A stretch of 64,000 nt of DNA from Arenicola marina (lineage: Eukaryota > Annelida > Polychaeta > Arenicolidae), in contig OZ025260.1 in the NCBI GenBank assembly GCA_964019135.1, positions 33,288,254-33,352,253 on the forward strand. The letters run 5' to 3'. A model generated the notes under the pieces. The model saw only the letters and a list, made by a program, of their open reading frames with translations, had not been told where the DNA came from and made no database searches. Positions 2,030 to 26,300 of this stretch are shown here, piece by piece. The position numbers and the translations under genes are program-made. Positions within the stretch are counted from its first letter, which is position 1, and every line of letters starts with the position of its first letter.

Positions 2030-2275
2030 CACTCGTTATGACTGAAGATCTCCCACATTGTGACGTCATCAATCAGAGCGTTACTTGCCATGACTAAAGA
2101 TCTCCCACATTGTGACGTCATCAGTCAGAGCTTTACTCCCTATGACTGAAGATCTCCCCATTGTGACGTCATATGTCAGTGCTATACTCACCATGACTGA
2201 ACATCTCACAGATTGTGACGTCATAAGTCAGCGCTTGACTCACCATGACTGAAGATCTCCCAGACTGTGACACCA
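2030..2275 (-). repeat. 52-bp splice-junction minisatellite (exon 22 end)
   Basis: Four intronic copies follow the exonic copy. Each has the exon 22 end (GGGAGATCTTCAGTCATG in sense), then a donor position, then about 24 bp of intron containing a TGACGTCA palindrome. Donors in order from the exon are GTGAGTCA (authentic), GTGAGTAT (52 bp on, intact), GGGAGTAA and GCAAGTAA (degraded). Skipping the true donor reads HGESSADL and then a stop. Confidence 0.85.
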
Positions 2276-2370
2276 TAGGACCACACATCTGATGCCTTGT
2301 TGTATGCCCTCGTCTCGCCCTTAGGCAGCCCCAGTTGCTCGGGGGCCATCCACTTGATGGGGACGCGTTC
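2244..2370 (-). CDS. Exon 22: activation-segment end and subdomain IX, last exon in window
   Basis: The acceptor is CTTGATCCGACCAG and the donor is TCATG|GTGAGT. It encodes [18 protein letters not shown], then [20 protein letters not shown] and SHG. The P+1 loop WMAPE and the structural Asp of SDVWSYG are intact and are of tyrosine-kinase type (VPIKWMAPE). The exon end plus donor is copied as a 52-bp unit in the intron. It leaves in phase 1; the next exon should begin like G-x-x-PY, which I could not find below 2,030. Confidence 0.9.
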
Positions 2371-5300
2371 CTGGTCGGATCAAGATATGAACTAATATGA
2401 AACACGTGATTTCAATGCTTTCAGGCTCAGTGGAAGCGCCGGACGATCATGTGGTGGCCCGTGAACACATATTGGATGGAGATTCGAGTTTCAGCCTCTC
2501 CAGTTGCCGAACGTTACTAATTTTGTTTATTTAAAAAGAAAGAACCCCAGAAATTATTTATTGCAGAAATAAATTTTAAAAATCTATTTTAGAAATCTAT
2601 TTCATAAATCTTTTTCATAAATCTATTTCAGAAATCTATTTCACAAATCTATTTCACAAATCTATTTCACAAATCTATTTCACAAATCTATTTCAGAAAT
2701 CCATCTACTTCAGAAATCTATTTCAGAAACCTACTTCAGAAATCTATTTCAGAAATCTATTTCAGAAATCTGTTTCAGAAATCTATTTCAGAAATCAACT
2801 TCAGAATTCTATTTCTTCTATTTATTTTTCAACAGGAGTATTTTTCAACAATGTGCTGCAAAAATTTGTTTTAGACATTTCTTTCAGAAATCTATGAGAA
2901 ATTGGTACTTACCTCGTTAACAGCCTCTTATGCATCTCATAATGAGAGATCATCATAAACAACCAGTTTAATAACGGAGGCTTCCTTTTCTGTTCATAAA
3001 GTATATATATTTACAACCTTATATTGCACATGTCCAGTGTATCCTACTTTACGCAAAATAGTCCCTACTGTTTAGAGACAATTTCACCCTCAGAAAAACT
3101 GTGCTTCCCATTATAACCGCCACAATATCTTTCCATCGTCGGCTGTAAAATATATTAAAAAAAAAAAAAAAAATTATATTCCGCGACTTCGGCCTTTTGT
3201 GCAGCCATTTTTGGTGCCAATCGCCTTCTCTCCTGGCAAAGGGCAGGGGCGGATCCAGAAAATCTGGATAGGGTGGGCCGGTTTTAGGGTCGGATCCAGA
3301 TATGCTGGATAGGGGGGCCGGTTTCGGTTTTTATATGTTAAATGGTATAAATTTCGGCCCTAAAAAGGGGTGCCTGGGCCGCCCCCCCCCCCTCCCCCCC
3401 TGGATCCGCCCCTTAAGGGTGCGGCGAGGGAAAACGAGAATACGAGGACGAGACCGCGAGAAAACGAGACCCATGTACTCTTCGGTTCCAATTTGGGCTT
3501 GGACACCATGAAGTCTGTTTTCTCTATTCATCCTGCATCATACCAGGAGGTCCTTGGCCAAGATTAGCCCTTACGTGGGTGCACAAAAGCGGTTTGAAAC
3601 CCCAATTCATTTTATATTCCAGACGTGATCCGGGTCTGTGTCTGACCTTCGCGCTGCTCATAGCCTCCGAGCCTTCCTGCTCCCCCTTCATGGGGCCGAA
3701 GCCGAACAGCTTGGCAAGTCTGCGTCCGTTGACAGTTCTCAGCAGCACATTACGCGCTCCAAGTCGCCTGTGAATTATCTGAAATATAAAATTATGAACA
3801 AATTTACTATTTAGCGGCATTCTTGAACTTGCCGATAGGCCACACGCAGATTTGATGGACGAGACAGGCCACGCCATTATAAATATCAGGCGGCCCCTCG
3901 CCTTGCACTGCTTAAATACGTGTAGAGAGGGAGGGAGGAAGAAAGTGTGAGCGCCATACACCCACACAAATATGACCTGAGCACGGCCCATCTTCAATTT
4001 TAGACCCCACGAAAGGGGTTATTGCAGTAAATGGTCGGCGTGAGTAACATTATGCTTCGGCGTGAGCTATGCTGAAACAATGGCAGAACGACTCGATGTT
4101 TGACCGTTGGACACGTGGTACATGACAAGATGATTGCTCCACATGGTCTGTCAGTAAATGACGCGTGACGTACCATTGACGTGCGCGTGACGTACGCGTG
4201 ACATAGGCGTGACGTACGTGTGACGTACGTGCAAAGACCTACCTCTTGCTGGTGGAGATGCTCGAGGCCGCGAGACACATCGGTGCAGAAGTTGATCATC
4301 TCATCCTCGTCGTCGGCAGTCGGGTTGCTGTGCTTCTTCAACCAGTCTTTCAGGCTTTCATCGCAGTACTCCAGCAGCAAGGTCTTACCTGCCAGTGACA
4401 ACACAGACGTACAGACAGCGCCCAGAGCATCAATTCATTAATCGCTCGTTAATTAAGGCCAAGAAAACACATTTTTACTTCAAATTGGAAACCATTTTCA
4501 TCTTTTCCAGCAAAGTTGAGTCAAAGTCCTTCAATGAATGGCAAGAACGACCGACCGATAGATCAGATTATATAATATTTTAATTACAGTTTCCGGTAAG
4601 GAAGCACGACCTGACGAGGTAAGGTATGCCCTGCACAACATGGCCAAAAGACCCGAGCGAGCATCCCGCACTCACGTGCCATGACCGCCCCCATGAAGTT
4701 GACGAGGTTGGGGTGTGGTTCGATTCCGTGAGCCATGAAGTTCATCTTGGCAACCATCAATAGTGCGTCGTCCGCAGTGTGGCGCTCTGTAAAAATACCA
4801 CAAATTAATACGGTGCACACATATCTAATGAATATATATGTATATATTTAAAGAATAAAACATGTTTTCACTAAATGCAATATGTATGTTTAAAATTTTG
4901 ACATATTGCTTATAAAATTATATATCATATTTATTATACATAATTACATTTATTATACATAATTATATTTATTGTACATTGTTATATTTATTATACAGAT
5001 TAATATTTATATTTGAATAAAACTTTCTTCCGTTTTTATTACCATATATTTGTGTTAAACCTGCACACTATTGCTTCTTATATATTACATATTACACATT
5101 GCAATAATACATATTACAATATTACGTATTGTATATAACATATTACATGATACAGAATTCTATAAACCGATCCCCAAGGTCCGTACGTTTCAGGGTCTTG
5201 GCTGCCACCGTCGTACGCTCCCCTTTCTCCTCCAGGATTCCGATATGGACGTCGGCGAACTTGCCGTGTACCAGGACTTTTCCCAGCGTGAAACGATCGC

Positions 5301-8300
5301 TGGAGTGCTTCCAGCTGGCCCCGGGATCCGTCTCCATGGCGCTGTAGAAGTAGATGTCATCCTCATCGCCGGTCAGGGCCGGGCGGGAGACGAAGTTCAC
5401 CGAGGGGTGCTGAGGGAACACAGAACACAACTCTTCAGCTATGGAAAGCCTAAGCGGTAGTTGGTTACGGGACTATTTAATTTACCGTGGACAATTAATG
5501 AAGTAGTTGATATGTCAATGAGTCTATCCTCAATTAAAGTGCCAACGAATTAATGGTCAATTAAATTGTCGAAGAATTACTAGTCAATTAAATTGTTCAT
5601 GAACTACTAGTCAATTAAAATGTCAATGAATTACTAGTCAGTTACATTGTCAATGAATTAGTAGTCAATTATTTTTTGAATTGATTAATAGCCAATTAAA
5701 ATGTCCGTTAAATTAAAACTAATTAATGTGTCTATTAACAGATATTTAATTATTGCTTTAATTGAGTACTTAATTTTTAGCCAGCTAGAAATGAGTAATT
5801 AAACATGTTGCGGCATTATGAGAGGTTGTTTTACACGACCATCATAAGTTAGGTAACGCGGTTACTAATTTCGCCTCGCTCATTCATCGACCAACTATCA
5901 TTGGGAAATTCCAGGCATTTACGTTAAACAAATTTAACATAAGAACAAGACATTGACATCTTTGTTTTCTCTGATAATAAATGCATCATGCTTGTGACCA
6001 CATTACAATTCATGCAACGGGCGAAGCACGTGGAACGCATTGTTCATATACCACCGACGCGCGAACGAAAGTTGCGCCACCTAGCGAGTGCCAGCGCCAC
6101 CTAGCGAGTGTGATTGCTGACCATGGTGTATCTGTTTGTCGCCTCCAGCTTGGCGCCTCTCTCCCAATCCAGATCGTCCGAGGCGGTCGGGTGGTGGGTG
6201 AAGCGATTCACGATGTCGCTCCGGATGGTCCGGGCTCTCGTTCGGATGTTCTCCGGGATCGGATCCTTGTGGGCTCGAATCCGGAGCAGGATGAACACCA
6301 CCACCAGGATAATCAGGATCAGCAGCAACAAACCTGCGTGGCGGCAGATCGGGATCTCATTAACACCCCATTAACATCTCATTAACATCTCATTATCGCT
6401 TTGGTTCGTAATATGTAATACTCGTTCTGCATTGCACGACGAAGTACAAAACAAATATTATCAACACTATATTCCAAGCATCCTTAAATATATTATTGAT
6501 AGGAATGCAGAACGGATGATACTTTGAGATGGTATAGTCTACACGCTTAAAGTTAATATAGCATCAACTTGTGAATCATGATATCAGATGGTTTTTGTTT
6601 TGAGAAGGTTGGTTTAACCAAGGTGGGAGGTTCAATCACTTCGCGAAGTGATCCGGCCTGTACATGTAGTTCGGTGGAAGGTTAGAGAAGAAATGAATTG
6701 AATTGGTGTTTTAGGGCTAAACTGGGCCAAGGAACCTCCCGAGACAATGAATGATGAATGGATGAAACCTGCCCCAGATTAGGTGTCCGGGTCTAGATGT
6801 TAACCCAGGACCTATTGATGTGTCGTCTTTTGCGTTAACAACTACTCCAAGGAAGCTCCCTCCGGAAGGTTAGATTACTTACCGATGACTATGCCAACAA
6901 TGCTTCCCGTTGGCAAATCAGGGCCAACCTCTGGAAACGCCAAATACAATACAAAAATCAGACATAATAAAGAAATTAGATTGTCACATGTGAGGGCGGG
7001 GTGTTATAACCTATAGCTATAGATTCATTGTCACAACGAGCACACGTTTTTTTACGACTAAAACGATTTACAAAACGTGGCTTATCAAATAGTGAACGGT
7101 GGAAATGAAACCAAATGTTTCTTACAGTGACTTGCATTCTGGTGTCGTGGTAGTTTATACGCGACCCTATTCGCCAGATGGCGACACCGTAACAACCAGT
7201 TCAACATTATCTGCCGCCTTCTAGCGAATCATCTCGTCGTTAATTGATGACTTGTGCTTCTATCTTGTGGGCCATTTCGTAAAATATTGCAACAGTACAA
7301 TGACAGGATACAATCTACCCGGGGGGAAGGAGGGGGGGGGGGGGCATTACATATAGTTACTAGGTGTATACATATGAGCTGCCCAAATGATTCAAGTTTT
7401 ACCACAATTACAGCTCTTGACTATATATTCGAATTGATATCGAAAGTGTTCAATTCATTAACCTTCATTTACATTGCCGTTACGTGGTGCAGACAGAGTC
7501 GGGGGCATGCGTTATTCTTACCCGGCCGGTCCACCGTAGCGAAGGAAAGGCTGTACTCCTCCCCACGCTGCATGAACACCCCATTCCTCCGGTTGTTATA
7601 TTCGATATACGCCGTCAGCCGGTACTCGTGTGTCGGTAGGAGACCCTCTATAATGACTTCAGTAGTGTTACTGCCTACCGTCTCGTGGCGCTCATTGTAG
7701 GACGTCGAGACGCCTTCCACTTGGAATACCACCGCCATGATCTCATAGCAACTCTCGTTGTAACGCCACGACAATCTCACACCGAAGCCCCAGTTCTCCA
7801 TCAGACGTACGTCCTCCGGGGCTGGGACTGTGGGGGGTGGGGACAGAGACAGAGGTATATAGAAGGATAGATACACACCGAGAGATGAAGACCGAGAGAT
7901 ACATACCGAAAGATACACACCAAGAGATACACACCGAGACACACAGAGATAGATACACACCGAGATACACACCCAGATGCACACCGAGAGATACGCATTG
8001 AGAGATACAAATCGAGAGATACACACCGAGAGATACACACCAAGAGATACACTCCGAGAGATAGCCACGGATAGATACACACCCAGATACACACCGACAG
8101 ATACACACCGAGAGATGCACATCGAGATATACACACCGACAGATACACACCGAGAGATACACATCGAGAGATACAGACCAAGAGATACAGACAGAGATAC
8201 ACACCGAGAGATACAGACCGAGAGATACACACCGAGAGATACACACCGAGATACACACCGAGAGATACACACCGAGAGATACAGACCAAGAGATACAGAC

Positions 8301-11300
8301 CGAGATGCACACCGAGAGATACACACCGAGAGATACAGACCAAGAGATATACACCGAGAGATACACACCGAGAGATATCACCCAAATACACACCGAGAGG
8401 TACACACCGAGAGATACACACCGAGAGATACACACCGAGAGATACACACCGAGAGATACACACCGAGAGATATAACCCAAATACACACCGAGAGGTACAC
8501 ACCGAAAGATACACACCGAGAGATATACACCCAGATACACACCGAGAGATAGAGACCAAGAGATACACACCGAGGGATACACACCGAGAGATACACACCG
8601 AGAGATATACACCGAGATACACACCGAGAGATACACACCGAGAGATAAACACCGAGAGATACACACCGAGAGATATACACCGAGAGATACAGACCAAGAG
8701 ATACAGACCAAGAGATACACATCGCGGGATACACACCGCGAGATACACACCGAGAAATACACACCGAGAGATACACACCGAGAGATACACACCGAGAGAT
8801 ACACACCGAGAGATACACATCGCGGGATACACACCGCGAGATACACACCGAGAAATACACACCGAGAGATACACATCGCGGGATACACACCGCGAGATAC
8901 ACACCGAGATACACACCGAGAGATACACACCAAGAGATACACACCGAGAGATACACACCGAGAGATACACATCGCGGGATACACACCGCGAGATACACAC
9001 CGAGAAATACACACCGAGAGATACACACCGAGAGATACACACCGAGAGATATACACCGAGATACACACCGAGAGATACACACCGAGAGATACACACCGAG
9101 AGATACACACCGAGAGATACACACCGAGAGATACACACCGAGAGATACACACCGAGAGATACACACCAAGAGATACACACCGAGAGATACACACCGAGAG
9201 ATACACATCGCGGGATACACACCGCGAGATACACACCGAGAAATACACACCGAGAGATACACACCGAGAGATACACACCGAGAGATATACACCGAGATAC
9301 ACACCGAGAGATACACACCGAGAGATACACACCGAGAGATACACACCGAGAGATACACACCGAGAGATACACACCGAGAGATACACACCGAGAGATACAC
9401 ACCAAGAGATACACACCGAGAGATACACACCGAGAGATACACACCGAGAGATATACACCGAGATACACACCGAGAGATACACACCGAGAGATACACACCG
9501 AGAGATATACACCGAGATACACACCGAGAGAGACACACCGAGAGATACACACCGAGAGATACACACCGAGAGATACAGACCAAGAGATACAGACCAAGAG
9601 ATACACACCGAGAGATACACACCGAGAGATACACACCGAGAGATATACACCGAGAGATACAGACCAAGAGATACAGACCAAGAGATACACACCGCGGGAT
9701 ACACACCGCGAGATACACACCGAGAAATACACACCGATAGATACACATCAAAAGATACAAACGAGTTACAAGTATTTTATAACATAGAAAATGGGGCTGA
9801 CTATTGTCGTATAATATGTTATATGATGCGCTCTTCCAAGCAACTAATCATTATGAAAAAATCCGACTTGACAATGAAGCATTGCAGTTTGAACATGTGT
9901 TATACTTACATTCATTCATTCCGCGCAGATCCGTCAGGACCCCAAGCTGAAACACATTGAGGGGGTTGACTTCAGCAGCAACATTAGGTGCTTTAGTCAT
10001 AACATGACAAAGCGTTGGTATACATGCAGCATCATCAATACCATATGCAACAATATCAAACTGGGCCGAGCGTGAAATATATAGATTTATCACTAAAGCC
10101 GATAATGTATTAATAATTCCAGAAAATATCAACAATGCCAATCGCTATATGCATATCTGCATAGAAACCTGCTATTTACAGCTGATTTCGCAATTTGCAC
10201 ACGTATTGGATTGATGCAGGATGGGTATCTGAATCAGTTTCGCGTCAGTTTATTTTTGATAGCCTCATTGACATGGAGATCAAACAAAACGGGACCCAAC
10301 CCGGAATAGAACGGATAGAGCGACCTGGCATTAATATTTACCTCTGTCTGTTAATAAAAAATCTCATTCCAGGTGATTAACGCAGTCATTTTGTGTGCCG
10401 TCAACGTCAGTGCGAACTATTGTTTCATCATTAAACTCATCATTACGATAGTCTAACCGTGAACCATAACATGCAGCAGGGTCAACTCCACCATAGATTG
10501 AACGTAGATATCAATCATACGGATTTGCTTCTGGCCGTGGATGGAGATTTTTGTCACGTTGTTCTATGGAAGGTTTCTATTTACCGGGTACTCGAATCCT
10601 GTCTGAAGTCGGGCCCGGTTGAAAACTTGACCTTCAATCTTAAGCTTCCTCCCTATGTGGTACCGAAGCCAACAATTATTGACGAACACCTCTTGTGGAC
10701 TCTCGTAACACTCTTCGAAATCTGTGCAGAAACAGTCAGGCGACGTTAGGCACTCGGCGGGTGTCTGAAACAGTAACAGAGTAACGGTTTTCATAACGAT
10801 AGACTTAGTAACTATGGCGACACTATCGTTGACCATAATGGATTGATAAGCAGCTACAACAGCCGCTGTGACGGACGAAGCGGCTCTACCAAACGGCACT
10901 CTGATTCACCTTCTGTACCAGAAGGGCCTCTGACTCACCTTCTGTACCAGACGGCCCTGTGACTCACCTTCTGTACCAGGCAGCCCTGTGACTCACCTTC
11001 TGTACCAGACGGCCCTGTGACTCACCTTCTGTACCAGACGGCCCTGTGACTCACCTTCTGTACCAGACGGCCCTGTGACTCACCTTCTGTACCAGACGGC
11101 CCTGTGACTCACCTTCTGTACCAGACGGCCCTGTGACTCACCTTTTGTACCAGACGGCCCTCTGACTCACCTTCTGTACCAGACGGCCCTCTGACTCACC
11201 TTCTGTACCAGACGGCCCTGTGACTCACCTTCTGTACCAGACGGCCCTGTGACTCACATTCTGTACCAGACGGCCCTCTGACTCACCTTCTGTACCAGAC

Positions 11301-14300
11301 GGCCCTCTGACTCACCTTCTGTACCAGACGGCCCTCTGACTCACCTTCTGTACCAGACGGCCCTGTGACTCACCTTCTGTACCAGGCGGCCCTCTGACTC
11401 ACCTTCTGTACCAGACGGCCCTGTGACTCACCTTCTGTACCAGACGGCCCTGTGACTCACCTTCTGTACCAGACGGCCCTGTGACTCACCTTCTGTACCA
11501 GACGGCCCTGTGACTCACCTTCTGTACCAGACGGCCCTGTGACTCACCTTCTGTACCAGGCGGCCCTCTGACTCACCTTCTGTACCAGACGGCCCTGTGA
11601 CTCACCTTCTGTACCAGACGGCCCTGTGACTCACCTTCTGTACCAGGCAGCCCTGTGACTCACCTTCTGTACGAGGCGGCCCTGTGACTCACCTTCTGTA
11701 CCAGGCGGCCCTCTGACTCACCTTCTGTACCAGACGGCCCTGTGACTCACCTTCTGTACCAGGCGGCCCTGTGACTCACCTTCTGTACCAAACGGCCCTG
11801 TGACTCACCTTCTGTACCAAACGGCCCTGTGACTCACCTTTTGTACCAGACGGCCCTCTGACTCACCTTCTGTACCAGACGGCCCTGTGACTCACCTTCT
11901 GTACCAGACGGCCCTCTGACTCACATTCTGTACCAGGCGGCCCTCTGACTCACCTTCTGTACCAGGCGGCCCTGTGACTCACCTTCTGTACCAGGCAGCC
12001 CTGTGACTCACCCTCTGTACCAAACGGCCCTGTGACTCACCTTCTGTACCAAACTGCACTCTGACTCACCTTCTGTACCAAACTGCACTCTGACTCACAT
12101 TCTGTACCAGGCGGCCCTCTGACTCACCTTCTGTACCAGGCAGCCCTGTGACTCACCTTCTGTACCAGACGGCCCTGTGACTCACCTTCTGTACCAGGCG
12201 GCCCTCTGACTCACCTTCTGTACCAGGCAGCCCTGTGACTCACCTTCTGTACCAGACGGCCCTGTGACTCACCTTCTGTACCAGACGGCCCTGTGACTCA
12301 CCTTCTGTACCAAACGGCCCTGTGACTCACCTTCTGTACCAAACTGCACTCTGACTCACCTTCTGTACCAAACTGCACTCTGACTCACATTCTGTACCAG
12401 ACGGCCCTCTGACTCACCTTCTGTACCAGGCGGCCCTCTGACTCACCTTCTGTACCAGGCGGCCCTGTGACTCACCTTCTGTACCAGGCAGCCCTCTGAC
12501 TCACCCTCTGTATCAGGCGGAGTTCTGACTCATCTTCTGTACCAGACGGCCCTGTAACTCACCTTCTGTACCAGACGGCCCTCTGACTCACCTTCTGTAC
12601 CAGCCAGCCCTCTGACTCACCTTCTGTTCTAGACGGCCCTCTGACTCACATTCTGTATCAGACGGCCCTCTGACCCACCTTCGGTACCAGGCGGCCCTGT
12701 AACTCACCTTCTGTACCAAACGGCACTCTGACTCACCTTCTGTACCAAACGGCCCTGTGACTCACCTTCTGTACCAGACGGCCCTCTGACTCACCTTCTG
12801 TACCAGACGGCCCTCTGACTCACCTTCTGTACCAGCCAGCCCTCTGACTCACCTTCTGTTTTAGACGGCCCTCTGACTCACATTCTGTATCAGACGGCCC
12901 TGTGACTCACCTTCTGTACCAGGCGGCCCTGTAACTCACCTTCTGTACCAAACGGCACTCTGACTCACCTTCTGTACCAAACGGCCCTGTGACTCACCTT
13001 CTGTGCCATACGGCCCTGTGACTCACCTTCTGCACCAGGCGGCCCTCTGACTCACCTTCTGTACCAGGCGGCCCTGTGACTCACATTCCGTGCCAGGCGG
13101 TCCAGTGACTCACCTTCTGTACCAGGCGGCCCTGTGACTCAACTTCTGTACCAGGCGGCCCTCTGACTCATCTTCTGTGCCAGTAGGCCCTGTGACTCAC
13201 ATTCCGTGCCAGGCGGTCCAGTGACTCAACTTCTGTACCAGGCGGCCCTCTGACTCATCTTCTGTGCCAGTAGGCCCAGTGACTCACCTTTTGCACCAAG
13301 TGTTCCTGTGACACAACTTCTGTACCAGGCGGCCCTGTGACTCACCTTTTGTACCAGGCGGCCCTCTGTCTCACCTTCTGTACCAGGCGGCCCTGTGACT
13401 CACCTTTTGCACCAGGTGTCCCTGTGACACAACTTCTGTACCAGGCGGCCCTGTGACTCACCTTTTGTACCAGGCGGCCCTGTGACTCACCTTTTGCACC
13501 AGGCGGCCCTGTGACTCACCTTTTGTACCAGGCGGCCCTGTGACTCACCGTCTGTACCAGGCGGCCCTGGTGGACCCTGGAGATGATTGTTTCCGGGTTC
13601 TGGTCGCTGGTGACGTCCACTATGTCGTATTCTATGGTGTGAATGCCGCCCACAATGTCAGCCGTGTAGACATTCAGCCTGAAAGTGTGGTATATAGTAA
13701 ACGACAGGGTAAGCTAAAGTTTTATTTTAAATAATAAAATCTTTAAAATAAATGAAATATCATTTTGAAAGAAACAAGAAGGGGAGAAGGGCATGTAATA
13801 TGCATTGTATTGGTTACTGGCACCTTTAATTCACATATATTGTATTGATTAATGGATACTTTAATTAACATAAATAATATTGATTAATGGAGACTTCAAT
13901 TCACATATATTTTATTGAGTAATGGAAACTTTAATTCACATATTATTGATTAATGGAGACTTCAATTCACATATATTTTATTGATTAATGGACAATTTAA
14001 TTCACGCAGCTTGTATTATTTAATGGAGACGTAATTAAGACAGATTGCATTAGTGAATTGAGACGTAATTAACAATGTAGACATAATTAATAAACTGCAT
14101 TGGTTATTGGATGTTTTACTACGCATATATTGCATTGCTTAAGGGAGACATTTTTTTTCAGATAGATTGTGTTTATTAATGAAAACTTTAATTCCGAAAT
14201 ATTGCATTGATTAACGGAAACTTTAATTCAGATAGACTGTATTAATGACTTGAAACTGCAATTCAAATATATTATATTAATTAATGGATACTTTAATTCA

Positions 14301-17300
14301 GATAGACTGCATTGATTAAAAGAGTGGTTAATTTAGATTATATCGACTAATAAATCCTATTCAACAAAATTTACCTGGAGTAATAACGCAAGTCTCCGTA
14401 TCCGGTGTTTTCCTCGAATGTTGTCATGGCAGAGTCAACGCTGGGGGCGGTGGAGTCGACTCGAATAGTGAAGTATTCCACGACGGAATGACCCACGGCG
14501 TCTTCTGCCCTAAGCCATAGCGTAAAGGCGTCCCCGTCCTCTCTACAGAAACAGCGAAAGGAACGGAAATGAGTTGGGGTTGAGGCCGCCTTGCGCACAC
14601 AAGGATGTGGGGAAGTCGTGTTTCCAGATCACGAAGAATACTTTTCTTTATTCCCAGATCACGGTGAATCAAAAGGGGAACTCCCCGCATACAAAGGAAG
14701 GGCCAATATACATGGTACTAAATTGACGATTTCCCGATTCACGGTTATTTAATCATAAAAATCCCAGTTCACCATTAATGAAAATCATTGATCACGGCGG
14801 TCGGCTAATACGCCATTCCCAGTTGGCGAAGAATTACTTTCCCCATTCCCAGTTTACGAAGAATTATTTTCCTCATTCCCAGTTGACCATGAAATAAAAA
14901 GCCCATGGAACGGAAATACCCCTTGCCCACTCCGCCATTCCCCCCCACAAGGCCTAAACTGGTCTAATGAACATCCCGGCCTACTGTCCTCTTTTCCCGC
15001 TAGGTGGCTAGACTAACGACAGAGTAGGATAAACACCGGCACGGAAGGTCACAGGAGGAGCTAAGCGATAATCGGGGCAGATGTGTTTATCAACTTCGAA
15101 CGATTCCGTCTGTATAAGATGTGTACAAATAACATTAGCACCATAAGGACGTCAATGACAGAAGTACCTGTTTTCCGTGATTTGCATGTTGTCCTGCAGG
15201 AAAAGTGACTGCCATTCTCCCTCTCCTGGCGCTTCCCTCTTCCTCCTCCGCCCCACCTGGGGCACATTGTACCCTTCCTGCAGCGCCATGCTGTAATTAG
15301 CCACTCCTGCCTGGTTGGGGAATTCCTCAAACGTCCTGTTCCCGATGATGTCATCAATGCCTTCTGGATATGCATCTTGGAAGGGCCGCGCCGGAGCTAG
15401 CCAATGTTTGGACAGCTGCATGTCGTTTCTGTACCTGTGATTGGCCCAGGTTTGGATTAGTATTGCCATGTTATTGATACAATTTATGTTATTGATGCAA
15501 TGATATTTAATGTAGCCATAAATTTTTATTATTAATAATATTACTCTAACAATTACCTGTGTTACTATTCATAATTTTTTTTCATTTTCAATTAATCATT
15601 GCTAACGAATTGTTATTAACGCATTAGTGCATTAAAAACAATTAAGTGATAATTGAACATTTTATTCAATAATATTATTATTATTACTAGTCAACATTTA
15701 TCGTTATCATCGTAATTAAAATATATATTTGCGCTGCGACAAAATTCCATCAGATCAATGGAACAGCAACATTAGCCGGGTTAAGAGAGCCACTTTAACA
15801 TATCAGGTTATTTGTCGAGATAACAGGGCCAACTGGAGCAATATGTACTCCTGGAGTAACTACTATCGTTGCGTTTTTGACGCCACATGCTGTAGCATGT
15901 GGGTCCCATAACGTGCATGATATTCTTCCTATTTCAAGACGTATGAAAACTCGTCGAGTTCAAATTCCAAGGATGCACCAAGAATGTCTGACTAAAATGG
16001 GCAAAAAGCCAAGACATGGCAATCGGACAATGGCGGTCATGTTGCCCTGTGCTATATATTGGTATTCGTTATGAATATAGGTCTATGGCGCACACGGCAG
16101 TTCTAGGCCTACTGTGGCAACAGTATGCCAGGTCTATTACGCTACGCACGCACGCACCTGTCTGTCCAAGACAGCTCTATCGGCCCCTGGGTCGTGTTCA
16201 CCCAGAGGTCGTTGTCCGCAACGCGATTCCCGCCTTGAATCTGCATCGGCGTCCCTGTCGTCTGCAGCGAGGAGACGTCATCGTAGAGCATCAGTGCGCG
16301 TGCGTAAGCCTTGTTATCAGCCCAGTCTGTGATGGTGGCGATAATGGAGTACATGCCGGCTTCGGGCAGGTTGAAAGAGAGCAGAGGGTCGTCAGATGTG
16401 ATGTCGTAAACGGATTCCAGGATGGGTTTCCGGTCCTCCAGCAGGTAGCCTTCCTCGTGCCACGACATGTGGTAGACGGCCACCTCCGCTGACTGCAGCC
16501 CGGAGTCCGCGTCTTCCCAGCCCGCAAAAGCCACCGTGAAATTGGAAGTCTGGAGAAATACAGGTTAGTACTTTTAGGTAAATTAGACATTCTAAAGGTA
16601 AAATAGCGCTCTCTTGGTGAATTGGACATGCACAATTATTAAGATAACTACCCAGTTCTCCTACCAAAGTGGACAGACTTAGCAAAGACAGGGCAATGCT
16701 CTATGACCAATGTGGACAGCTCAAAGACAGGGCAACGCTCTATGACCAATGTGGACAGCTCAAAGCCAGAACAACGCTCTATGACCAAAGAGGACAGCCC
16801 AAAGACAGGGCAACGCTCTATGACCGATGTGGACAGCCCAATGACAGGGCAACGCTCTATGACCAAAGAGGACAGCTCAAAGCCAGAACAACGCTCTATG
16901 ACCAAACAGGAGAGCCCAAAGACAGGGCCATGCACGCTATATGACCAAAGTGGACAGCCCAAGGACAGAGCAACGCTTTATGGCCAAAAAGGACAACCCA
17001 AAGACAGAGCAAGGCTCTATGACCAAAGTGGACATCCCAAAAACAGAGCAACGCTCTATGACCAAAGTGGACAGCTCAAAGACAGGGCCATGCACTCTAT
17101 GACCAATGTGGACAGCTCAAAGACAGGGCCATGCACGCTCTATAACCAATGTGGACAGCTCAAAGATAGGGCAACGCTCTATGATCAATGTGGACAGCCC
17201 AAAGACAGAGCAACGCTCTATGACCAAAGTGGACAGCCCAAAGACAGGGCAACGCTCTATGATCAAAGAGGACAGCTCAAAGACAGGGCAACGCTCTATG

Positions 17301-20300
17301 AGCAAAGTGGACAGCCCAACGAGAGGGCCATGCAGGCTCTATGACCAATGTGGACAGCTCAAAGACAGGGCCATGCACGCTCTATAACCAATGTGGACAG
17401 CTCAAAGATAGGGCAACGCTCTATGATCAATGTGGACAGCCCAAAGACAGAGCAACGCTCTATGACCAAAGTGGACAGCCCAAAGACAGGGCAACGCTCT
17501 ATGATCAAAGAGGACAGCTCAAAGACGGGGCAACGCTCTATGACCAAAGAGGACAGCCCAAAGACAGGGCAACGCTCTATGACCGATGTGGACAGCCCAA
17601 AGACAGAGCAACGCTCTATGGCCAAAGTGGTCATCCCAAAGACAGGGCAATGCTCTATGACCAAAGAAGACAGCCCAAAGACAGAGCAAGGCTCTATGAC
17701 CAAAGTGGACATCCCAAAGACAGGGCAACGCTCTATGACCAAAGACAGGGCAACGCTCTATGACCAAAGATGACAGCCCAAAGATAGGGCAACGCTCTAT
17801 GACCAAAAAAGACAGCCCAAAGATAGGGGCATGCAAGCTCAATGATGAAAGAGGACAGCCCAGAGACAGGGCCATGCACACTCTATGATGAAAGAGGACA
17901 GCCCAACGACAAGGCCATGCACACTCTATGATGAAAGAGGACAGCCCAAAGACAGGGCCATGCACGCTCTATGATGAAAGAGGACAGCCCAAGACAGGGC
18001 CATGCACGCTCTATGATGAAAGAGGACAGCCCAGAGACAAGGCCATGCAAGCTCTATGATGAAAGAGGACAGCCCAGAGACAGGGCCATGCAAGCTCTAT
18101 GATGAAAGAGGACAGCCCAGAGACAGGGCCATGCACGCTCTATGATGAAAGAGGACAGCCCAGAGACAGGGCCATGCAAGCTCTATGATGAAAGAGGACA
18201 GCCCAGAGACAGGGCCATGCAAGCTCTATGATGAAAGAGGACAGCCCAGAGACATAGCCATGCACGCTCTATGATGAAAGAGGACAGCCCAAAGACAGGG
18301 CCATGCAAGCTCTATGATGAAAGAGGACAGCCCAAAGACAGGGCCATGCACGCTCTATGATGAAAGAGGACAGCCCAAAGACAGGGCCATGCACGCTCTA
18401 TGATGAAAGAGGACAGCCCAGAGACAGGGCCATGCAAGCTCTATGATGAAAGAGGACAGCCCAGAGACAGGGCCATGCAAGCTCTATGATGAAAGAGGAC
18501 AGCCCAGAGACAGGGCCATGCAAGCTCTATGATGAAAGAGGACAGCCCAGAGACAGGGCCATGCAAGCTCTATGATGAAAGAGGACAGCCCAGAGACAGG
18601 GCCATGCAAGCTCTATGATGAAAGAGGACAGCCCAGAGACATAGCCATGCACGCTCTATGATGAAAGAGGACAGCCCAAAGACAGGGCCATGCAAGCTCT
18701 ATGATGAAAGAGGACAGCCCAAAGACAGGGCCATGCACGCTCTATGATGAAAGAGGACAGCCCAAAGACAGGGCCATGCACGCTCTATGATGAAAGAGGA
18801 CAGCCCAGAGACAGAGCCATGCACCCCAATGATGAAAGAGGACAGCCCAGAGACAGGGCCATGCACGCTCTATGATGAAAGAGGACAGCCCAAAGACAGG
18901 GCCATGCAAGCTCTATGATGAAAGAGGACAGCCCAAAGACAGGGCCATGCAAGCTCTATAATGAAAGAAGACAGCCCAAAGACAGGGCCATACACGCTCT
19001 ATGATGAAACAGGACAGCCCAGAGACAGGGCCATGCAAGCTCTATGATGAAAGAGGACAGCCCAAAGACAGGGCCATGCAAGCTCTATAATGAAAGAGGA
19101 CAGCCCAAAGACAGGGCCATGCAAGCTCTATGATGAAAGAGGACAGCCCAAAGACAGGTCCATGCACGCTCTATGATAAAAGGTCACAATTGGGTATGGA
19201 AATTGGTGTTTCGTAACATAAACAGGGATCAGAGAAATAGGTAGGCCTACACGATTTGCATATCTGGCAATTATTGTCTTAAATCTTCTTGCATTGTCAC
19301 ATGAGTTCTCCAAGCAATAAATGGTTACTACAAACACACGTGGAAAAAGTGTTATGGATGCCACATACCGGTAGGAGGTCGGGTCCATGAATGATTGGGT
19401 TGACCCTTGATGCATCACACTCCCCAGTCTGGTAACAGTGGTAGGGTGGGACGAAGTCGAACTTAAACACCAAGACATCCCTGTTGGTGTCGATGCCAAT
19501 GATGGTGGTAGTCCTTGTATTTTGGAGGTTGCTCTCATCTCGCACTGTCTTGTATCCGCCCGTCTTGCTGCCCACCCTCAACTCCAGCCTGAAAAGACCG
19601 GTAAACCATGTACGAATTGTAGTCATACGAAACACACTTACACTGTAAACATACATCGGTGTTGCTTATAACTGTCAGTAGGCTACATGTCAGATTCTCC
19701 TCTGATATAGCAGCTTATAACGCCGATAAATGCCATATCTATATTAATATTGCAAGCATCAGAAGGTTACAGCTTTCTCAGGACTGTCAAATAGCGACGG
19801 ACACTATTACTCTCAACATTCTCAAATACTCTCACCCTCAATTACTAACGCTTTCAATTAGTATAACCCTGATAGTCATTGTAGTGATAGTTAGTAACGC
19901 TTTCAATTACTATTCCTCTCACTTACTATCCCCTCAATTACTACCCCCCTCAATTACTAGCCCTTTCAATCATCAACATTTTCAATTACTATCACCCTCA
20001 ATTAAATAACGCTTTCAATTACTATCACCCTCAATTACTAACGCTTTCAATTTCTACCCCCTGAATTATTATCATTTTCAATTACTATCACCCTCAATTG
20101 CTATCACCATCAGTTACTATAACTTTCAATCACTCTCACTCTCACTTAATTTCTATCATTCGCAATTACTACCACCCTCCATTCCTATATTTCTCAATTA
20201 GTGTCCCCTTCACGTCATATCACTCGCAATTGCTATCACTCTCAATTGCTATCAATCTCAATTGATGTAACACTCAATTGCTATCAATCTCAATTGGTGT

Positions 20301-23300
20301 CACTCTCAATTGCTATCATCGGGCGCTGTGCGGCCCAATCCACGTAGTAAGACGGTACCTCTTAACCAGTTGTCGACGGTACTTACCTTACATAGTAAGA
20401 CGGTACTAACCTTACGCAGTAAGACGGTATTTACCTTACGCAGTAAGACGGTATTTACCTTACGCAGTAAGACGGTATTTACCTTACGTAGTCAGACGGT
20501 ACTAACCTTACGTAGTAAGACGGTACTTACTGTTGACCAGTGGTCACTCTGCGTAGTAAGACGGTACTTACTTGTGATCAGTTGTCACTCCGCGTAGTAA
20601 GACGGTACTTACTCTTGTCCAGTTTTCACTTCGCGTAGTAAGACGGTACTTGCCCTTGACCATTTGTCACTCGGCGTAGTAAGACGGTACTTACTCTTGT
20701 CCAGTTTTCACTTCGCGTAGTAAGACGGTACTTGCTCTTGACCATTTGTCACTCCGCGTAGTAAGACCGTACTTACTCTTGTCCAGTTTTCACTTCGCGT
20801 AGTAAGACGATACTTACTCTTGACCATTTGTCACTCCGCGTAGTAAGACGGTACTTACTGTTGACCAGTTGTCACTCTGCGTAGTAAGATGGTACCTGCT
20901 CTTGACCAGTGGTCACTCTGCGTAGTAAGACGGACTTACTTGTGACCAGTTGTCACTCCGCGTAGTAAGATGGTACCTGCTCTTGACCAGTGGTCACTCT
21001 GCGTAGTAAGACGGTACTTACTGTTGACCAGTGGTCACTCTGCGTAGTAAGACGGTACTTACTTGTGATCAGTTGTCACTCTGCGTAGTAAGATGGTACC
21101 TGCTCTTGACCAGTGGTCACTCTGCGTAGTAAGACGGTACTTACTCTTGTCCAGTTTTCACTTCGCGTAGTAAGACGGTACTTGCTCTTGACCATTTGTC
21201 ACTCCGCGTAGTAAGACGGTACTTACTCTTGTCCAGTTTTCACTTCGCGTAGTAAGACGATACTTACTCTTGACCATTTGTCACTCCGCGTAGTAAGACG
21301 GTACTTACTGTTGACCAGTTGTCACTCTGCGTAGTAAGATGGTACCTGCTCTTGACCAGTGGTCACTCTGCGTACTAAGACGGACTTACTTGTGACCAGT
21401 TGTCACTCCGCGTAGTAAGATGGTACCTGCTCTTGACCAGTGGTCACTCTGCGTAGTAAGACGGTACTTACTGTTGACCAGTGGTCACTCTGCGTAGTAA
21501 GACGGTACTTACTGTTGACCAGTTGTCACTCCGGCCGGAAATGCGAAGGTGACGTTGCAATCTTTGCTTTCACTGGGGTCTCCCGTGGGTGTTTTTTTGT
21601 AGCAGGATATCGTGGACGTGGTTAATGTAGAGTTATCTGATTGAAAAGGAACAAACACTGCTTGCTATCTGGTAGTAAAAAAAATCTAAGTACCACATGA
21701 TAGATCAATGTAAACAATGTAAACATGAACTGACCCAATACTTGTTTTTGCGTCGTTATGCCACTCAGACATTCATGGCCACTTTCGCTTTATGACATGC
21801 ATCAGCACTTTTTAATGCAGATCAACTATTTTTATATATCATTACTGTTTCATTATAAATATATATATATATATATATCACTAACTTTCTTACATGCATG
21901 AACACGTTGATTTATGTATCATTACTGTAGTGTTATATCACTACTTTTATAAATATATCGTTCATTGCCTATTTAGTTGCACTACTTTCGTGTGTCAATC
22001 CCTATTTTAGTATATGGGTTCGGCGGTATGGTTGTCTCACTCCGCCTCCCCAACGGGTCTCCCACCTGTTCCCCGCAGCGTCATGGTCGCGAAGGTCTCA
22101 GTCATGCCATGCAGGAAGTTGCTCAGGTAGGCGGGTCGTTCCGGGAGGTCCGTCACACGGTCGTAGCTCGCCAGCCACCGGAAGTTGACCATGTCGAAGT
22201 CTCGTTTCCCGGCCCACGTGGTATGGTTCTTTCTCTCCTCGATCCCGCAGAGGCCGTTGTGGAGCGGGTTCCCGCTCGCCAGCAGAGTGCCCTGACATGT
22301 CGGCGCGTTCACACCGGCCCTCACTGCAAGCACAAGTACCGTGTGAGCAGGGATCGTATTCATAATCCCCTCGTAAGTTACGCACGAAAAGTGCATTTTC
22401 GTCTTAGCCTCACCAGGTGGTTGTGGTGGCGTTCATTATCAGGAAATTATATTCAATATAATCTTAGCACTTTCTTAATTCAGAAAATGCACTTCTTGGG
22501 TGAATACTTATGTATTTTACAACCCGATAATCGATCGACAAAATTCCACTTAGCACTAAGTCTAGTGGCGTAGCCTAAGTGGGGATTAGTTGGCCCTAGA
22601 ATAGGACATTAGCATGGAGCGGGGCGAAATATTTGGCCCCCGCCGTTCGAACTTACGGACCCAGAAGACGTGACAGTATCCATCAATCGATTAATTCAGT
22701 ACTTGTAAAAAAAACTAAGATCATAATTTGAGTACTTTACGCCTGAAGGCAAATTTAGCACAAGAAACCTGGCCATATTCGGAACATGCCCCAGATGAGG
22801 GCGCAAAGGTTCGAACCCATGACCTATTGGTCCTATTACTGGCCTGCTCGTCAACTGAACGAGTGATGCTTCCATTTCAAAATAGAAGGATTATACAATT
22901 TATGACAAACGGGTTATTTGTATCCCGAAGACCTATTTTTCATAGATATTGCTTTATCGGTCGATATTTCTAAAAACATCCACATGATGAAGTATGTAAA
23001 GTCATTTATCGCAAAAACAAATATTCGAGGAAGTGTTCACTGGGAGAAAATGGTGGTCTACGAATAAGTGTTAAAGTGGCCTTTAGCCTGGTGTTTCACT
23101 TACACAGTTGGCAGTTGTTTCCGTGGAAGAGTCCGGGACACGTACACACCGGACGTCCGGTCCGTCTCGAACATGTGCCTGGGTAGCAATCCGTTTCGAA
23201 CGAACAAGTCTCTGTAATAACCATAAACAGTCGCAATATATAGGCTACACCAGAAGAGTGAGAGGTGTGGTTGGGGGTGGGTGGGGGGGGGGGGGAGTAA

Positions 23301-26300
23301 AGAGAAAGGGAGAGAGAGAAAAGACACTACGGTGGATAATTGGGATGGGATGTAAACAAACACGCACACAACATTAAAATTAAAATACGCCATGACTCCG
23401 ATGACCTTGGAAGCAGAGATCTATATGACTACAATAAGGCATGGAGAAAACGCTGGCGTTCGGGTTGGGAACACAGCTACGAGGCAAGGGTTTCGATCTC
23501 GTCGATCACATAACGACCCACTGAATGCCGAAACACATTTTACTATGATCTCATCATCTACCTCTAAACCAATTACCACTACTTTTTCCACTTTGATTTC
23601 TAGCTGAAAGATTCAATATATTTCTCATGGGAAAACATTGTCGTATAAACAGCTTTAACGTATCTGCGCCATGGTCCAGGATCAAACGCAACAAGAAACA
23701 CTCACTTAGCGCACAAATGTCGCCGGAGAAGGTCGTTGGGCAGTCACAATCGTCGGGGCCAATGCACACTCCCTCGTTAAGACATGCTGGGTTGCATATC
23801 GCTAATGGTAAGGAACGGCAAATGAAGCCTTCAAATACGCTCTTAATTACGGGTAATCTGTGGATATGCATCATATATAGAGACTTCTGCAGAGGTTTCT
23901 TGACAACCTTGGTGCATGTTAACCAGTGCAAGACGCTTGTTGGCAAATAATTAAAAATGTATCATGTCAGCAGCTACAAAGGAGACTCTTATAGGAAGGG
24001 GTCTGGAAGAGGTACATGGCGACACGTGACACAGCCATATTCGAAAAAGCGACATTCGACATTGATAGTGGCATTTTAGAAGAAAAACGACACTGAACAT
24101 AACCAAAAAGTGACAAAGAACGTCGTGAAAAATCGACACTGGACACTGGACCCCACCCTTCCAAACCCTTATATGAAGTTTATCGGCAAATCCGTCAAGG
24201 AACTGTTACATAAGGGGGTCCGTCGACAATGCAATGTATAAGAGCGGTCTTATGATTCATGGGCCTTCGGTTTACTATCTACACCCCGCCCCCCCCCCCC
24301 CCCCTGGATCGGCGCGTGGGTTTTGTCACTCACGGATGTCGCATCGAGTCCCACGCCAGCCGCTACAGCAGGACGTGTAATCTATCCTTGTTACTGTCTT
24401 CAAGCTACAGGAACAGGCCCAACGGCAAATGTACCTAAAATCAGCCAAATTAGAAAAAACACATAGGTATATGAATAACAAACTTACTTGTCCATATGTT
24501 ATTAATGATGTTGATTATGTTCGTTTGCTGACATGTAATGCGGTGTTTAGTATTTCACATTTTGCGTTGATGCGAGAACTGCATCGATCGTTTTCAACGT
24601 GTTGTTTACAAAGTTGTTGTTTGTCAAAAGAAAATATCACATAATTGATGAACCGTGAAGTGGCTTTAACAAAAACGGTAACAATCGGTAACAACGTACC
24701 AACCGACATAACAATTGTAGCACCATCGAAGTTCACGCTGGCATGACCAAACGGAGTAAGATCGCGTTGTCGGACAGAAATGAGTCAGGCTAGAAAGATA
24801 AAAAGGGTAAACTTCACATTCAAGGCACAGTAAACAAACAGTGGCAATGACGAAATGGCAATCGCGAGCCTCGTGGGCGCAGTTATCTGAAGTGTTGAGC
24901 CATAAACGAATCAGGGGCGAATCTAAACTTAAGGGGGTGGGGGGCAGGGGCGGATCTAGGAATTTGCCAAGGGGGGGGGGGGTGCTTTCCTTCTCCAGCA
25001 TTAGGTTGCTGCTCGTGGACAGCGATAGGCTGCTTTTTTCTCGGGGCCTTAACCTGTCGGTGGAGGGGGGCTTCTGCGGCTTGACCAGGGGGTGGGGGGC
25101 TATAGCCGCAGTAGCCCCCCCCCACCCGCTGGATCCGCCACTGGGGATGGACCATCTGATTGGTTCGTGACCAGAATGCCGTTCTCGGTGGTTCCAAGTC
25201 AACAGGCCTAGCTGCACGCTCTGCCTTCGACTCACTCCGCTAGGGCTCCATTAGATCTCTGTTGTCGCCTACTTCCTCAATGCATTTTCACACTCGCTCG
25301 CATTTTTACACCAGCTGCAGATCAATCGAACACGGGTTCGTGCCATTTCATTTTCTCGGAAGCTTTCTTTGCCAAGTTTGGCCTTCGCGAGATTGAATAT
25401 ACAGGTATGTCTAGAAACACCGTCTTTTCATTTTTACGATCGTTCCTTGAAGTTTTTGCACGTTCAGAAGGCCTGCAAACTCTTGGGTGTAAGTCTATGA
25501 CTGGGGAAATGGAATTTGTTTTTCCGTTTAACGGAAAAAACCACGCCCGCCAAGATCGTATTTACCGAGAAACACGGTGCTTTCCGTGAATGATACCTTG
25601 AATATGTCATTGGTCACAATTACGGTGACGTCGTACCAATTTCTTATAATCATACAATTCGTTCACGTCCACATCAGTACTGCTATACGCTGCTGGTGAA
25701 ATAGCACAATCACAAGAAGTGACGACCATTACATTCGTGCAAACATATTCAGTATTCAGATTAGTATTTTTACCCCTTCATCGGGTAGTATCCTCACCGT
25801 GCTGCTGTTGCACAGACAAACATATTTTTGGTGTAAGAAATTAAGATTTTGAAGCCCTCCATAAAATTGGACAACATATTTCTACAAAGAAACTTCCTGC
25901 TGAAGCCTAGCGTCAGTGTGAATAAATTAATAGCAAAAAAAGCTATGTTGCTAGACTATCTTTTGTCCATAAGCTCGATTGTAAGCAAAATAGGCTATAC
26001 AAGTTCTTTTCACAAGTTTGCCTTGCAATCGCTGAATATTTTGTGTATTTGTTTGTCATACATAACATACGTGCAACTTAGGCGGAACTAATACTTGATG
26101 TGACATGGGTTGATATTGGTTATCATTGAAAGCTCAAAAATACAACAAAATAAATTTGGTTCTGAAAAAATCTGCCAGGCGACACCCGCGCTCGACCTTA
26201 AGACATATTTTTTCAATTTAAGTGTCACCCTTGAGTGGGGGACAGGACCGCGTAGCCACTGGCGCAGTCAGCCACGGCAGACCGACCGAAGGGTGTAAGT

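What the first reader, a model, noticed from the sequence alone, without database searches (positions are those of the whole stretch)
2030..21532. One gene has three independent minisatellites built from its own exon-intron junctions
After exons 7, 12 and 22, the intron begins with a tandem array whose unit is the last 18-30 exon bases, the 5' splice site and 11-24 intron bases. Unit sequences are unrelated to one another, so the same process happened three times. It implies that the 5' splice-junction region was repeatedly the seed of tandem duplication, or that arrays elsewhere are not tolerated. I recall, unverified, that junction-spanning 'mirage' minisatellites were reported in an amphioxus gene; three in one gene would make it a recurrent genomic process. 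Seen directly: unit-to-exon identity. Inferred: mechanism.
Basis: partly seen in the sequence, partly recalled or inferred. Interest (0 to 1): 0.88.

Follow-up and report, generated by a model that had tools for sequence, protein, structure and literature searches.

The report
Splice-site-spanning tandem repeats in an annelid
In one receptor gene of a marine worm, three introns begin with long tandem repeats that copy the end of the exon together with its splice signal, and the same arrangement turns up in other genes of this genome; a similar oddity was known from amphioxus, so the kind is not new, but the animal group and the scale appear to be.

Summary
A receptor tyrosine (pseudo)kinase gene on the minus strand (22 exons in the window) has three tandem arrays (52, 29 and 41 bp units) that start inside exons 22, 12 and 7 (28, 21, 21 exon bases) and run into the intron, each unit carrying the 5' splice site. 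Homologous proteins support the exon ends, best for 7 and 22. Two paralogues carry the same three arrays; copy number varies at two sites. The host is not amphioxus: its COX1 is closest to annelids (Pilargis wolfi, 91%). Other genes show it too: ALDH1L, DBT and a dynein heavy chain (exons identified by homology) and three to four unnamed coding exons. The kind is known as amphioxus "mirage" minisatellites. Most likely this genome makes minisatellites everywhere, and those spanning a donor survive because the exon and its own donor stay intact. Seeding at donors is possible but unproven; which donor is used needs RNA.

The parts
2038..2271 (-). Array A: 52-bp unit x 4.5, spans the end of exon 22 (28 exon bases) and its donor GTCATG|GTGAGT
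   Evidence: TRF; exon model; overlap; present in paralogues P1 and P2
2244..2370 (-). Exon 22 (kinase, ...[15 protein letters not shown])
   Evidence: the four homologues continue with GDTPF, GESPY, GESPF and GEAPY
10887..13569 (-). Array B: 29-bp unit x 92.5, spans the end of exon 12 (21 exon bases) and donor CAGACG|GTGAGT; 84 of 91 full units keep GT
   Evidence: found beside the same exon in all 5 genomic places that one search returned
13549..13678 (-). Exon 12
20511..21533 (-). Array C: 41-bp unit x 25, spans the end of exon 7 (21 exon bases) and donor TCAACA|GTAAGT; about 3 copies in P1 and P2
20375..20530 (-). 24-bp sub-array x 6.5 next to array C, sharing its intronic half and carrying AAG|GTAAGT
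   Evidence: sequence
21513..21636 (-). Exon 7
   Evidence: junction 7/8 aligned with homologues
2244..27406 (-). Receptor tyrosine (pseudo)kinase gene, exons 1-22; a likely last kinase exon lies left of the window at C13:33285877-33286002 (tblastn, 33% identity); the exon or exons between were not located

Best explanation
These are junction-spanning ('mirage') minisatellites. This genome gives birth to and expands minisatellites at a high rate. When a short tandem duplication happens to cover an exon end, its 5' splice site and the start of the intron, the first copy remains the exon end with an intact donor and all further copies fall inside the intron. If the exon-proximal donor is the one used, the change is nearly silent, so the array can then grow and vary in copy number. 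A duplication across a 3' splice site would place an extra AG and exon start upstream of the real one and so should be lost more often. Shown: the arrays, exon ends, sharing among paralogues, copy-number change at two sites and recurrence in other genes. Inferred: tolerance at donors, selection against acceptor arrays and use of the proximal donor.
For: Tandem repeats cover 54% of 252 kb around the gene. 12 of 15 merged arrays in the gene are plain intronic. In three paralogues 9 of 66 donors are spanned and none of 63 acceptors (21 per copy, exon 1 having none); that is 3 and 0 independent sites. Copy number differs between paralogues at sites B (92.5, 122, 120) and C (25, 2.9, 3) and not at A (4.5 each). 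Homologous proteins contain no array-derived residues at junctions 7 and 22, and the ALDH1L exon stops where its array begins. The donor motif is not clearly over-represented among arrays compared with its reversal, as expected if seeding is not donor-specific. Prior reports of amphioxus mirages say regular splicing is not disturbed (passages).
Against: No RNA was available, so proximal-donor use is untested. In array B of the window copy the intronic consensus donor (AAG|GTGAGT) looks closer to the usual consensus than the exon's own (ACG|GTGAGT), which makes faithful choice harder to explain; in P1 and P2 the exon itself ends AAG. An acceptor-side mirage exists in amphioxus (BflGb6), so acceptor arrays are not forbidden, and I did not search for them elsewhere here. 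Of 9 AGGTAAGT arrays, 4 pass an exon score at p < 0.02 and 6 look like exon ends by eye, which may exceed a neutral expectation that I could not measure.
Confidence: 0.6

Rival explanations
1. The 5' splice-site neighbourhood is itself a hot spot: something tied to transcription or splicing there (for example a nascent RNA:DNA hybrid or a polymerase pause) promotes tandem duplication, so donors seed arrays more often than other sequence.
For: Three donors in one gene (P = 0.043 in that gene). Of 9 AGGTAAGT arrays on C1 0-39.5 Mb, 4 have a significant exon score and 6 look like exon ends. The one C2 array whose flank I fetched (of two C2 arrays listed) follows a DBT exon. One of the 8 arrays picked by the reversed motif is a dynein exon junction, though it is the only one I fetched and I chose it because its unit held GTAAGA.
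Against: The number of donor-motif arrays is about that of the reversed motif (9 against 8), and for short spacing the copy count is lower (857 against 1317). In 45 crudely de-duplicated local unit families GTRAG[TGA] occurs in 7 and its reversal in 5. A large share of AGGTAAGT 8-mers may be real donors anyway (own estimate, not measured).
Confidence: 0.22
2. Coincidence alone: minisatellites are so dense that some must overlap exon edges, with no difference between donors and acceptors.
For: 54% tandem repeat locally; P = 0.21 for three or more junctions of any kind in this gene, and no acceptor hit in 43% of trials.
Against: No acceptor spanned at 21 sites in each of three paralogues; recurrence of donor arrays in several other genes. 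Acceptor arrays elsewhere were not searched, so this rival is weakened, not excluded.
Confidence: 0.12
3. The arrays have a function in RNA processing: tens of decoy donors bind U1 snRNP and tune splicing, intron retention or premature termination.
For: Decoy donors are kept in most B units: GT intact in 84 of 91, 117 of 121 and 117 of 119 full units in three paralogues.
Against: GT is intact in only 16 of 24 full units of C and 2 of 4 of A in the window copy. Copy number of C is 25 in one paralogue and about 3 in two. Homogenisation of repeats explains the conservation in B.
Confidence: 0.04
4. Assembly artefact: collapsed or expanded repeats misplaced at exon edges.
For: Long arrays are hard to assemble; the copy at C13:33412414 matches the window exon at 100%.
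Against: The same three junctions carry arrays in separately placed paralogues with different copy numbers at two of them, and unrelated genes show it too.
Confidence: 0.02

Closest known systems
Amphioxus 'mirage' minisatellites (Adh3; troponin C; globins BflGb6 and BflGb9; PGBD5)
   Same: Tandem repeats whose unit spans an exon-intron boundary and duplicates a splice site; copy-number differences; reported not to disturb regular splicing (passages of PMC3087553, and PMC3902484; the original Adh3 paper was not held)
   Different: Host here is an annelid; three donor-side arrays in one gene; up to about 122 copies; several other genes of the same genome affected; in the passages read BflGb6 had 6 and 3 units in two haplotypes and is an acceptor-side case
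Internal tandem repeats at exon-intron boundaries of human genes in segmental duplications
   Same: Minisatellite-sized repeats (average 30-bp units) at exon-intron boundaries in recently duplicated genes (passages of PMC2812944)
   Different: In human they average about 4 units and can form novel introns; here the exon ends fit homologues and the repeats lie in the intron
Earthworm metallothionein intron-1 minisatellites
   Same: Large minisatellite arrays inside an annelid intron (passages of PMC12783039)
   Different: The passages read describe them as intronic, not as spanning the exon end
Intron gain by tandem genomic duplication
   Same: Duplication around splice signals (search listing only; model also described in the PMC3087553 passages)
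   Different: No new intron is shown here

Membership tests
Mirage minisatellites | Tandem repeat with minisatellite-sized unit | tested here: met
   52, 29 and 41 bp units, 4.5, 92.5 and 25 copies
Mirage minisatellites | Unit spans the exon-intron boundary and duplicates the splice site | tested here: met
   Arrays overlap exons 22, 12 and 7 by 28, 21 and 21 bases and include the donor
Mirage minisatellites | Exon end is real | tested here: met
   Junctions 7/8 and 22 fit four homologous proteins; 12/13 is in a variable stretch, two of four align through it; ALDH1L, DBT and dynein exons elsewhere. cDNA not available
Mirage minisatellites | Copy-number instability | tested here: met
   Met between paralogues for B (92.5, 122, 120) and C (25, 2.9, 3), not for A (4.5 each); somatic or population instability not tested
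Mirage minisatellites | Regular splicing undisturbed | not testable with these tools
   No RNA data for this organism here
Mirage minisatellites | Cephalochordate host (the host group in the passages read) | tested here: not met
   COX1 best named hits are annelids, Pilargis wolfi 91%; the host is not part of what the structure is, so I treat this as an extension of range

The most novel reading that the evidence does not exclude
Donor neighbourhoods are a recurrent birthplace of minisatellites in animal genomes. In this annelid, extrapolating from 4 to 6 junction arrays in 39.5 Mb for one exact donor octamer gives roughly a hundred for that octamer and, if the octamer is about a tenth of all donors (own estimate), about a thousand in all. 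If so, the process arose or persists independently in annelids and cephalochordates and continuously supplies duplicated splice sites as raw material for new introns and isoforms.
Probability: 0.22. Interest if true: 0.78.

Novelty: new member of a known kind. Interest (0 to 1): 0.52.

Why it matters
In the papers of which I read passages, junction-spanning minisatellites appear as a feature of amphioxus, suggested to be general in cephalochordates, and in a different form in human segmental duplications. Finding them at several genes of an annelid suggests that the kind is not confined to chordates, and gives a natural experiment: genes in which up to about a hundred near-identical 5' splice sites follow one exon, while the exon ends still fit homologous proteins. 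That makes the question of how the spliceosome picks the right donor among identical ones directly testable with RNA from one animal, and gives a substrate for models of intron birth by tandem duplication.

Tried and rejected
Amphioxus as host: rejected on COX1; the receptor's near relatives are unnamed proteins, annelid (Ridgeia) and bivalve proteins, while amphioxus proteins appear only as distant kinase matches. The GFP family search as a species marker found nothing in this genome or in the control genomes and says nothing. A local motif test over 45 unit families was inconclusive (7 donor against 5 reversed). The genome-wide count of single AGGTAAGT, which would give the neutral share of real donors, was asked many times and never answered; a second donor motif (AGGTGAGT) was asked once, came back busy and was not asked again. 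Acceptor arrays elsewhere in the genome were not searched. A first protein search with a 520-residue piece found nothing; that tool only takes candidates of similar length, and the full-length search worked. The exon score was trained on this gene's own exons, its null positions avoid arrays and this gene's exons but not those of unknown genes, and it gives p < 0.05 for 12 of the 22 known exons; of the three exons of the finding only exon 12 passes (p = 0.0008; exon 7 0.059, exon 22 0.19). L043 (p = 0.28) is called an exon only by eye, and L044 was judged by eye and not scored. Of the two C2 arrays listed I fetched one.

Full report
What is there. The window is bases 33288254-33352253 of contig C13 in an 867-Mb, 762-contig animal assembly. 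The tandem-repeat finder gives arrays at 2038-2271, 10887-13569 and 20511-21533, with a 24-bp array at 20375-20530 beside the last. Reading the minus strand I built a gene of 22 exons between 27406 and 2244 with one open frame of 1182 residues and GT-AG introns. Pfam finds a tyrosine-kinase domain above its cut-off, and fibronectin III and EGF matches below theirs. The kinase is incomplete in the window; a likely last kinase exon lies to the left at C13:33285877-33286002 (tblastn, 33% identity), and what lies between was not located.

The junctions. Arrays overlap the ends of exons 22, 12 and 7 by 28, 21 and 21 bases and include the donors GTCATG|GTGAGT, CAGACG|GTGAGT and TCAACA|GTAAGT. A full-length protein search found relatives over most of the length: an unnamed 1273-residue protein (35% identity) and bivalve proteins such as one of Mercenaria, plus partial matches in the annelid Ridgeia (about a fifth of the query); amphioxus proteins appear only far down as kinase matches. 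Aligned with four relatives, junction 7/8 and the end of exon 22 are free of array-derived residues; junction 12/13 lies in a variable stretch, where two of the four align through it and two have gaps before it. The exon ends are therefore supported without RNA, least well for exon 12.

Age and change. Exon 12 with its array occurs at the five places returned by the search, four on C13 and one on C3. In the 252 kb that I could read there are three copies with all 22 exons, the window's included. Each carries the three donor arrays: B with 92.5, 122 and 120 copies, C with 25, 2.9 and 3, A with 4.5 in each (window, P1, P2). The simplest reading is three births before these duplications, and copy-number change afterwards at two of the sites. 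No acceptor is spanned among 21 in each copy. Most intronic copies in B keep an intact GT (84 of 91, 117 of 121, 117 of 119 full units), fewer in C (16 of 24) and A (2 of 4) of the window copy.

Chance in this gene. Tandem repeats cover 54% of the 252 kb. Placing the gene's 15 merged arrays at random, with up to 35 bases of exon overlap allowed, gives 0.82 donor-spanning arrays on average; three or more occur in 4.3% of trials, three or more junctions of either kind in 21%, and no acceptor in 43%. The single gene is therefore weak evidence for anything special about donors.

Other genes. A whole-genome pattern search for three copies of AGGTAAGT spaced 10 to 40 bases lists, in its capped list of places, nine separate arrays on C1 from 0 to 39.5 Mb. 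I read the upstream flank of each. One follows an ALDH1L exon, 51 residues matching formyltetrahydrofolate dehydrogenase up to the exon end (E 2e-25). Using a codon score calibrated on 8000 random positions outside arrays and outside this gene's exons, four of the eight that I scored reach p < 0.02: ALDH1L 0.0004, L042 below 1/8000, L047 0.0065, L040 0.0135. L045 has p = 0.067 with a clear acceptor and a membrane helix, and L043 0.28; L039 (1.0) and L041 (0.21) show no exon; L044 was not scored and shows none by eye. On C2 one of the two arrays listed was examined: it follows an exon of the branched-chain E2 enzyme DBT (E 5e-6). An array from the reversed-motif control list, chosen because its unit held GTAAGA, follows a dynein heavy chain exon (E 4e-11). 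At C1:1.09 Mb the exon is followed by two unrelated donor-bearing arrays in series.

Is the donor enriched? Not clearly. The reversed motif TGAATGGA gives eight arrays over the same 39.5 Mb. Copy counts are 3844 against 2525 for spacing 10-40 and 857 against 1317 for spacing 10-26. What stands out is where the donor arrays lie, at exon ends in four to six of nine. A proper expectation needs the share of all AGGTAAGT words that are real donors; that search did not complete. My own rough estimate, from typical gene numbers, is that this share could be a third or more, so the observed share may be only mildly above neutral.

Which animal. The mitochondrial contig C762 holds COX1 with 13 internal TGA codons. 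ATA stands where methionine is expected and AAA where lysine is expected (reading, expected residues recalled). Among the 8000 candidates scored, the named hits in the first 49 rows are annelids, first Pilargis wolfi at 91%; gastropods begin at row 50 with 83% (Pilargis is in Phyllodocida). Together with the receptor's annelid and mollusc relatives this makes the host most likely a polychaete annelid, unless the mitochondrial contig were foreign, which I did not test further.

What is known. I read passages of two papers on amphioxus: globin genes (PMC3087553) and PGBD5 (PMC3902484). They call such repeats mirages, cite Adh3 and (PMC3902484) troponin C, and say that splicing is not disturbed; PMC3087553 calls the mechanism unclear, the phenomenon possibly more general in cephalochordates, and shows both boundary types. 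The original Adh3 paper was not found in the library. In human segmental duplications repeats at exon-intron boundaries are known as well (passages of PMC2812944). Ten searches of the held library (two, with lists cut short) listed no report of the kind in annelids, but only asked for annelids by name; it listed an earthworm metallothionein study (passages read) and an earthworm genome (listing only). Subscription papers are mostly not in that library.

Conclusion. The structure is real and belongs to a known kind, in a phylum where I found no report of it and apparently at larger scale. The most economical account is a high genome-wide rate of minisatellite birth with survival of those at donors, because the first copy leaves exon and donor intact. 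Preferential seeding at donors remains possible. Function is unlikely but untested.

Noticed in passing
window 36831-60089: A 23-kb array of about 690 copies of a 34-bp unit holding GGAG|GTATGT on the plus strand; 30 kb in paralogous block P1 but 0.5 kb in P2. No exon was seen beside it by eye.
   Followed up: partly
window 2244-5409: The kinase has HRR where HRD and LFGFG where DFG are usual (motifs recalled); the four homologues fetched share HRR and a GFG in place of DFG, so this looks like a family of receptor pseudokinases.
   Followed up: partly
C13:33281325-33282435 and C13:33129691-33130968 (left of the window): A 24-bp array with AAAG|GTAAGG, preceded in both copies by a conserved short open stretch; possibly a further junction array.
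   Followed up: partly
C13:33.10-33.35 Mb, L006-L024 and window: Tandem repeats make up 54% of 252 kb.
   Followed up: yes
C1:1086177-1094877 (L047, L046, L038): One exon followed by two unrelated donor-bearing arrays in series, 27 bp then 42 bp.
   Followed up: partly
C1:0-39.5 Mb: All nine AGGTAAGT arrays listed there are on the plus strand, while the two C2 arrays listed are on the minus strand; unexplained, perhaps chance.
   Followed up: no
window 6122 and 3647: Exons 17 and 21 have unusual donors GTCAGC and GTCAGA.
   Followed up: no
window 4161-4229: An 11-bp array starts 14 bases inside intron 20, next to the donor but not over it.
   Followed up: no
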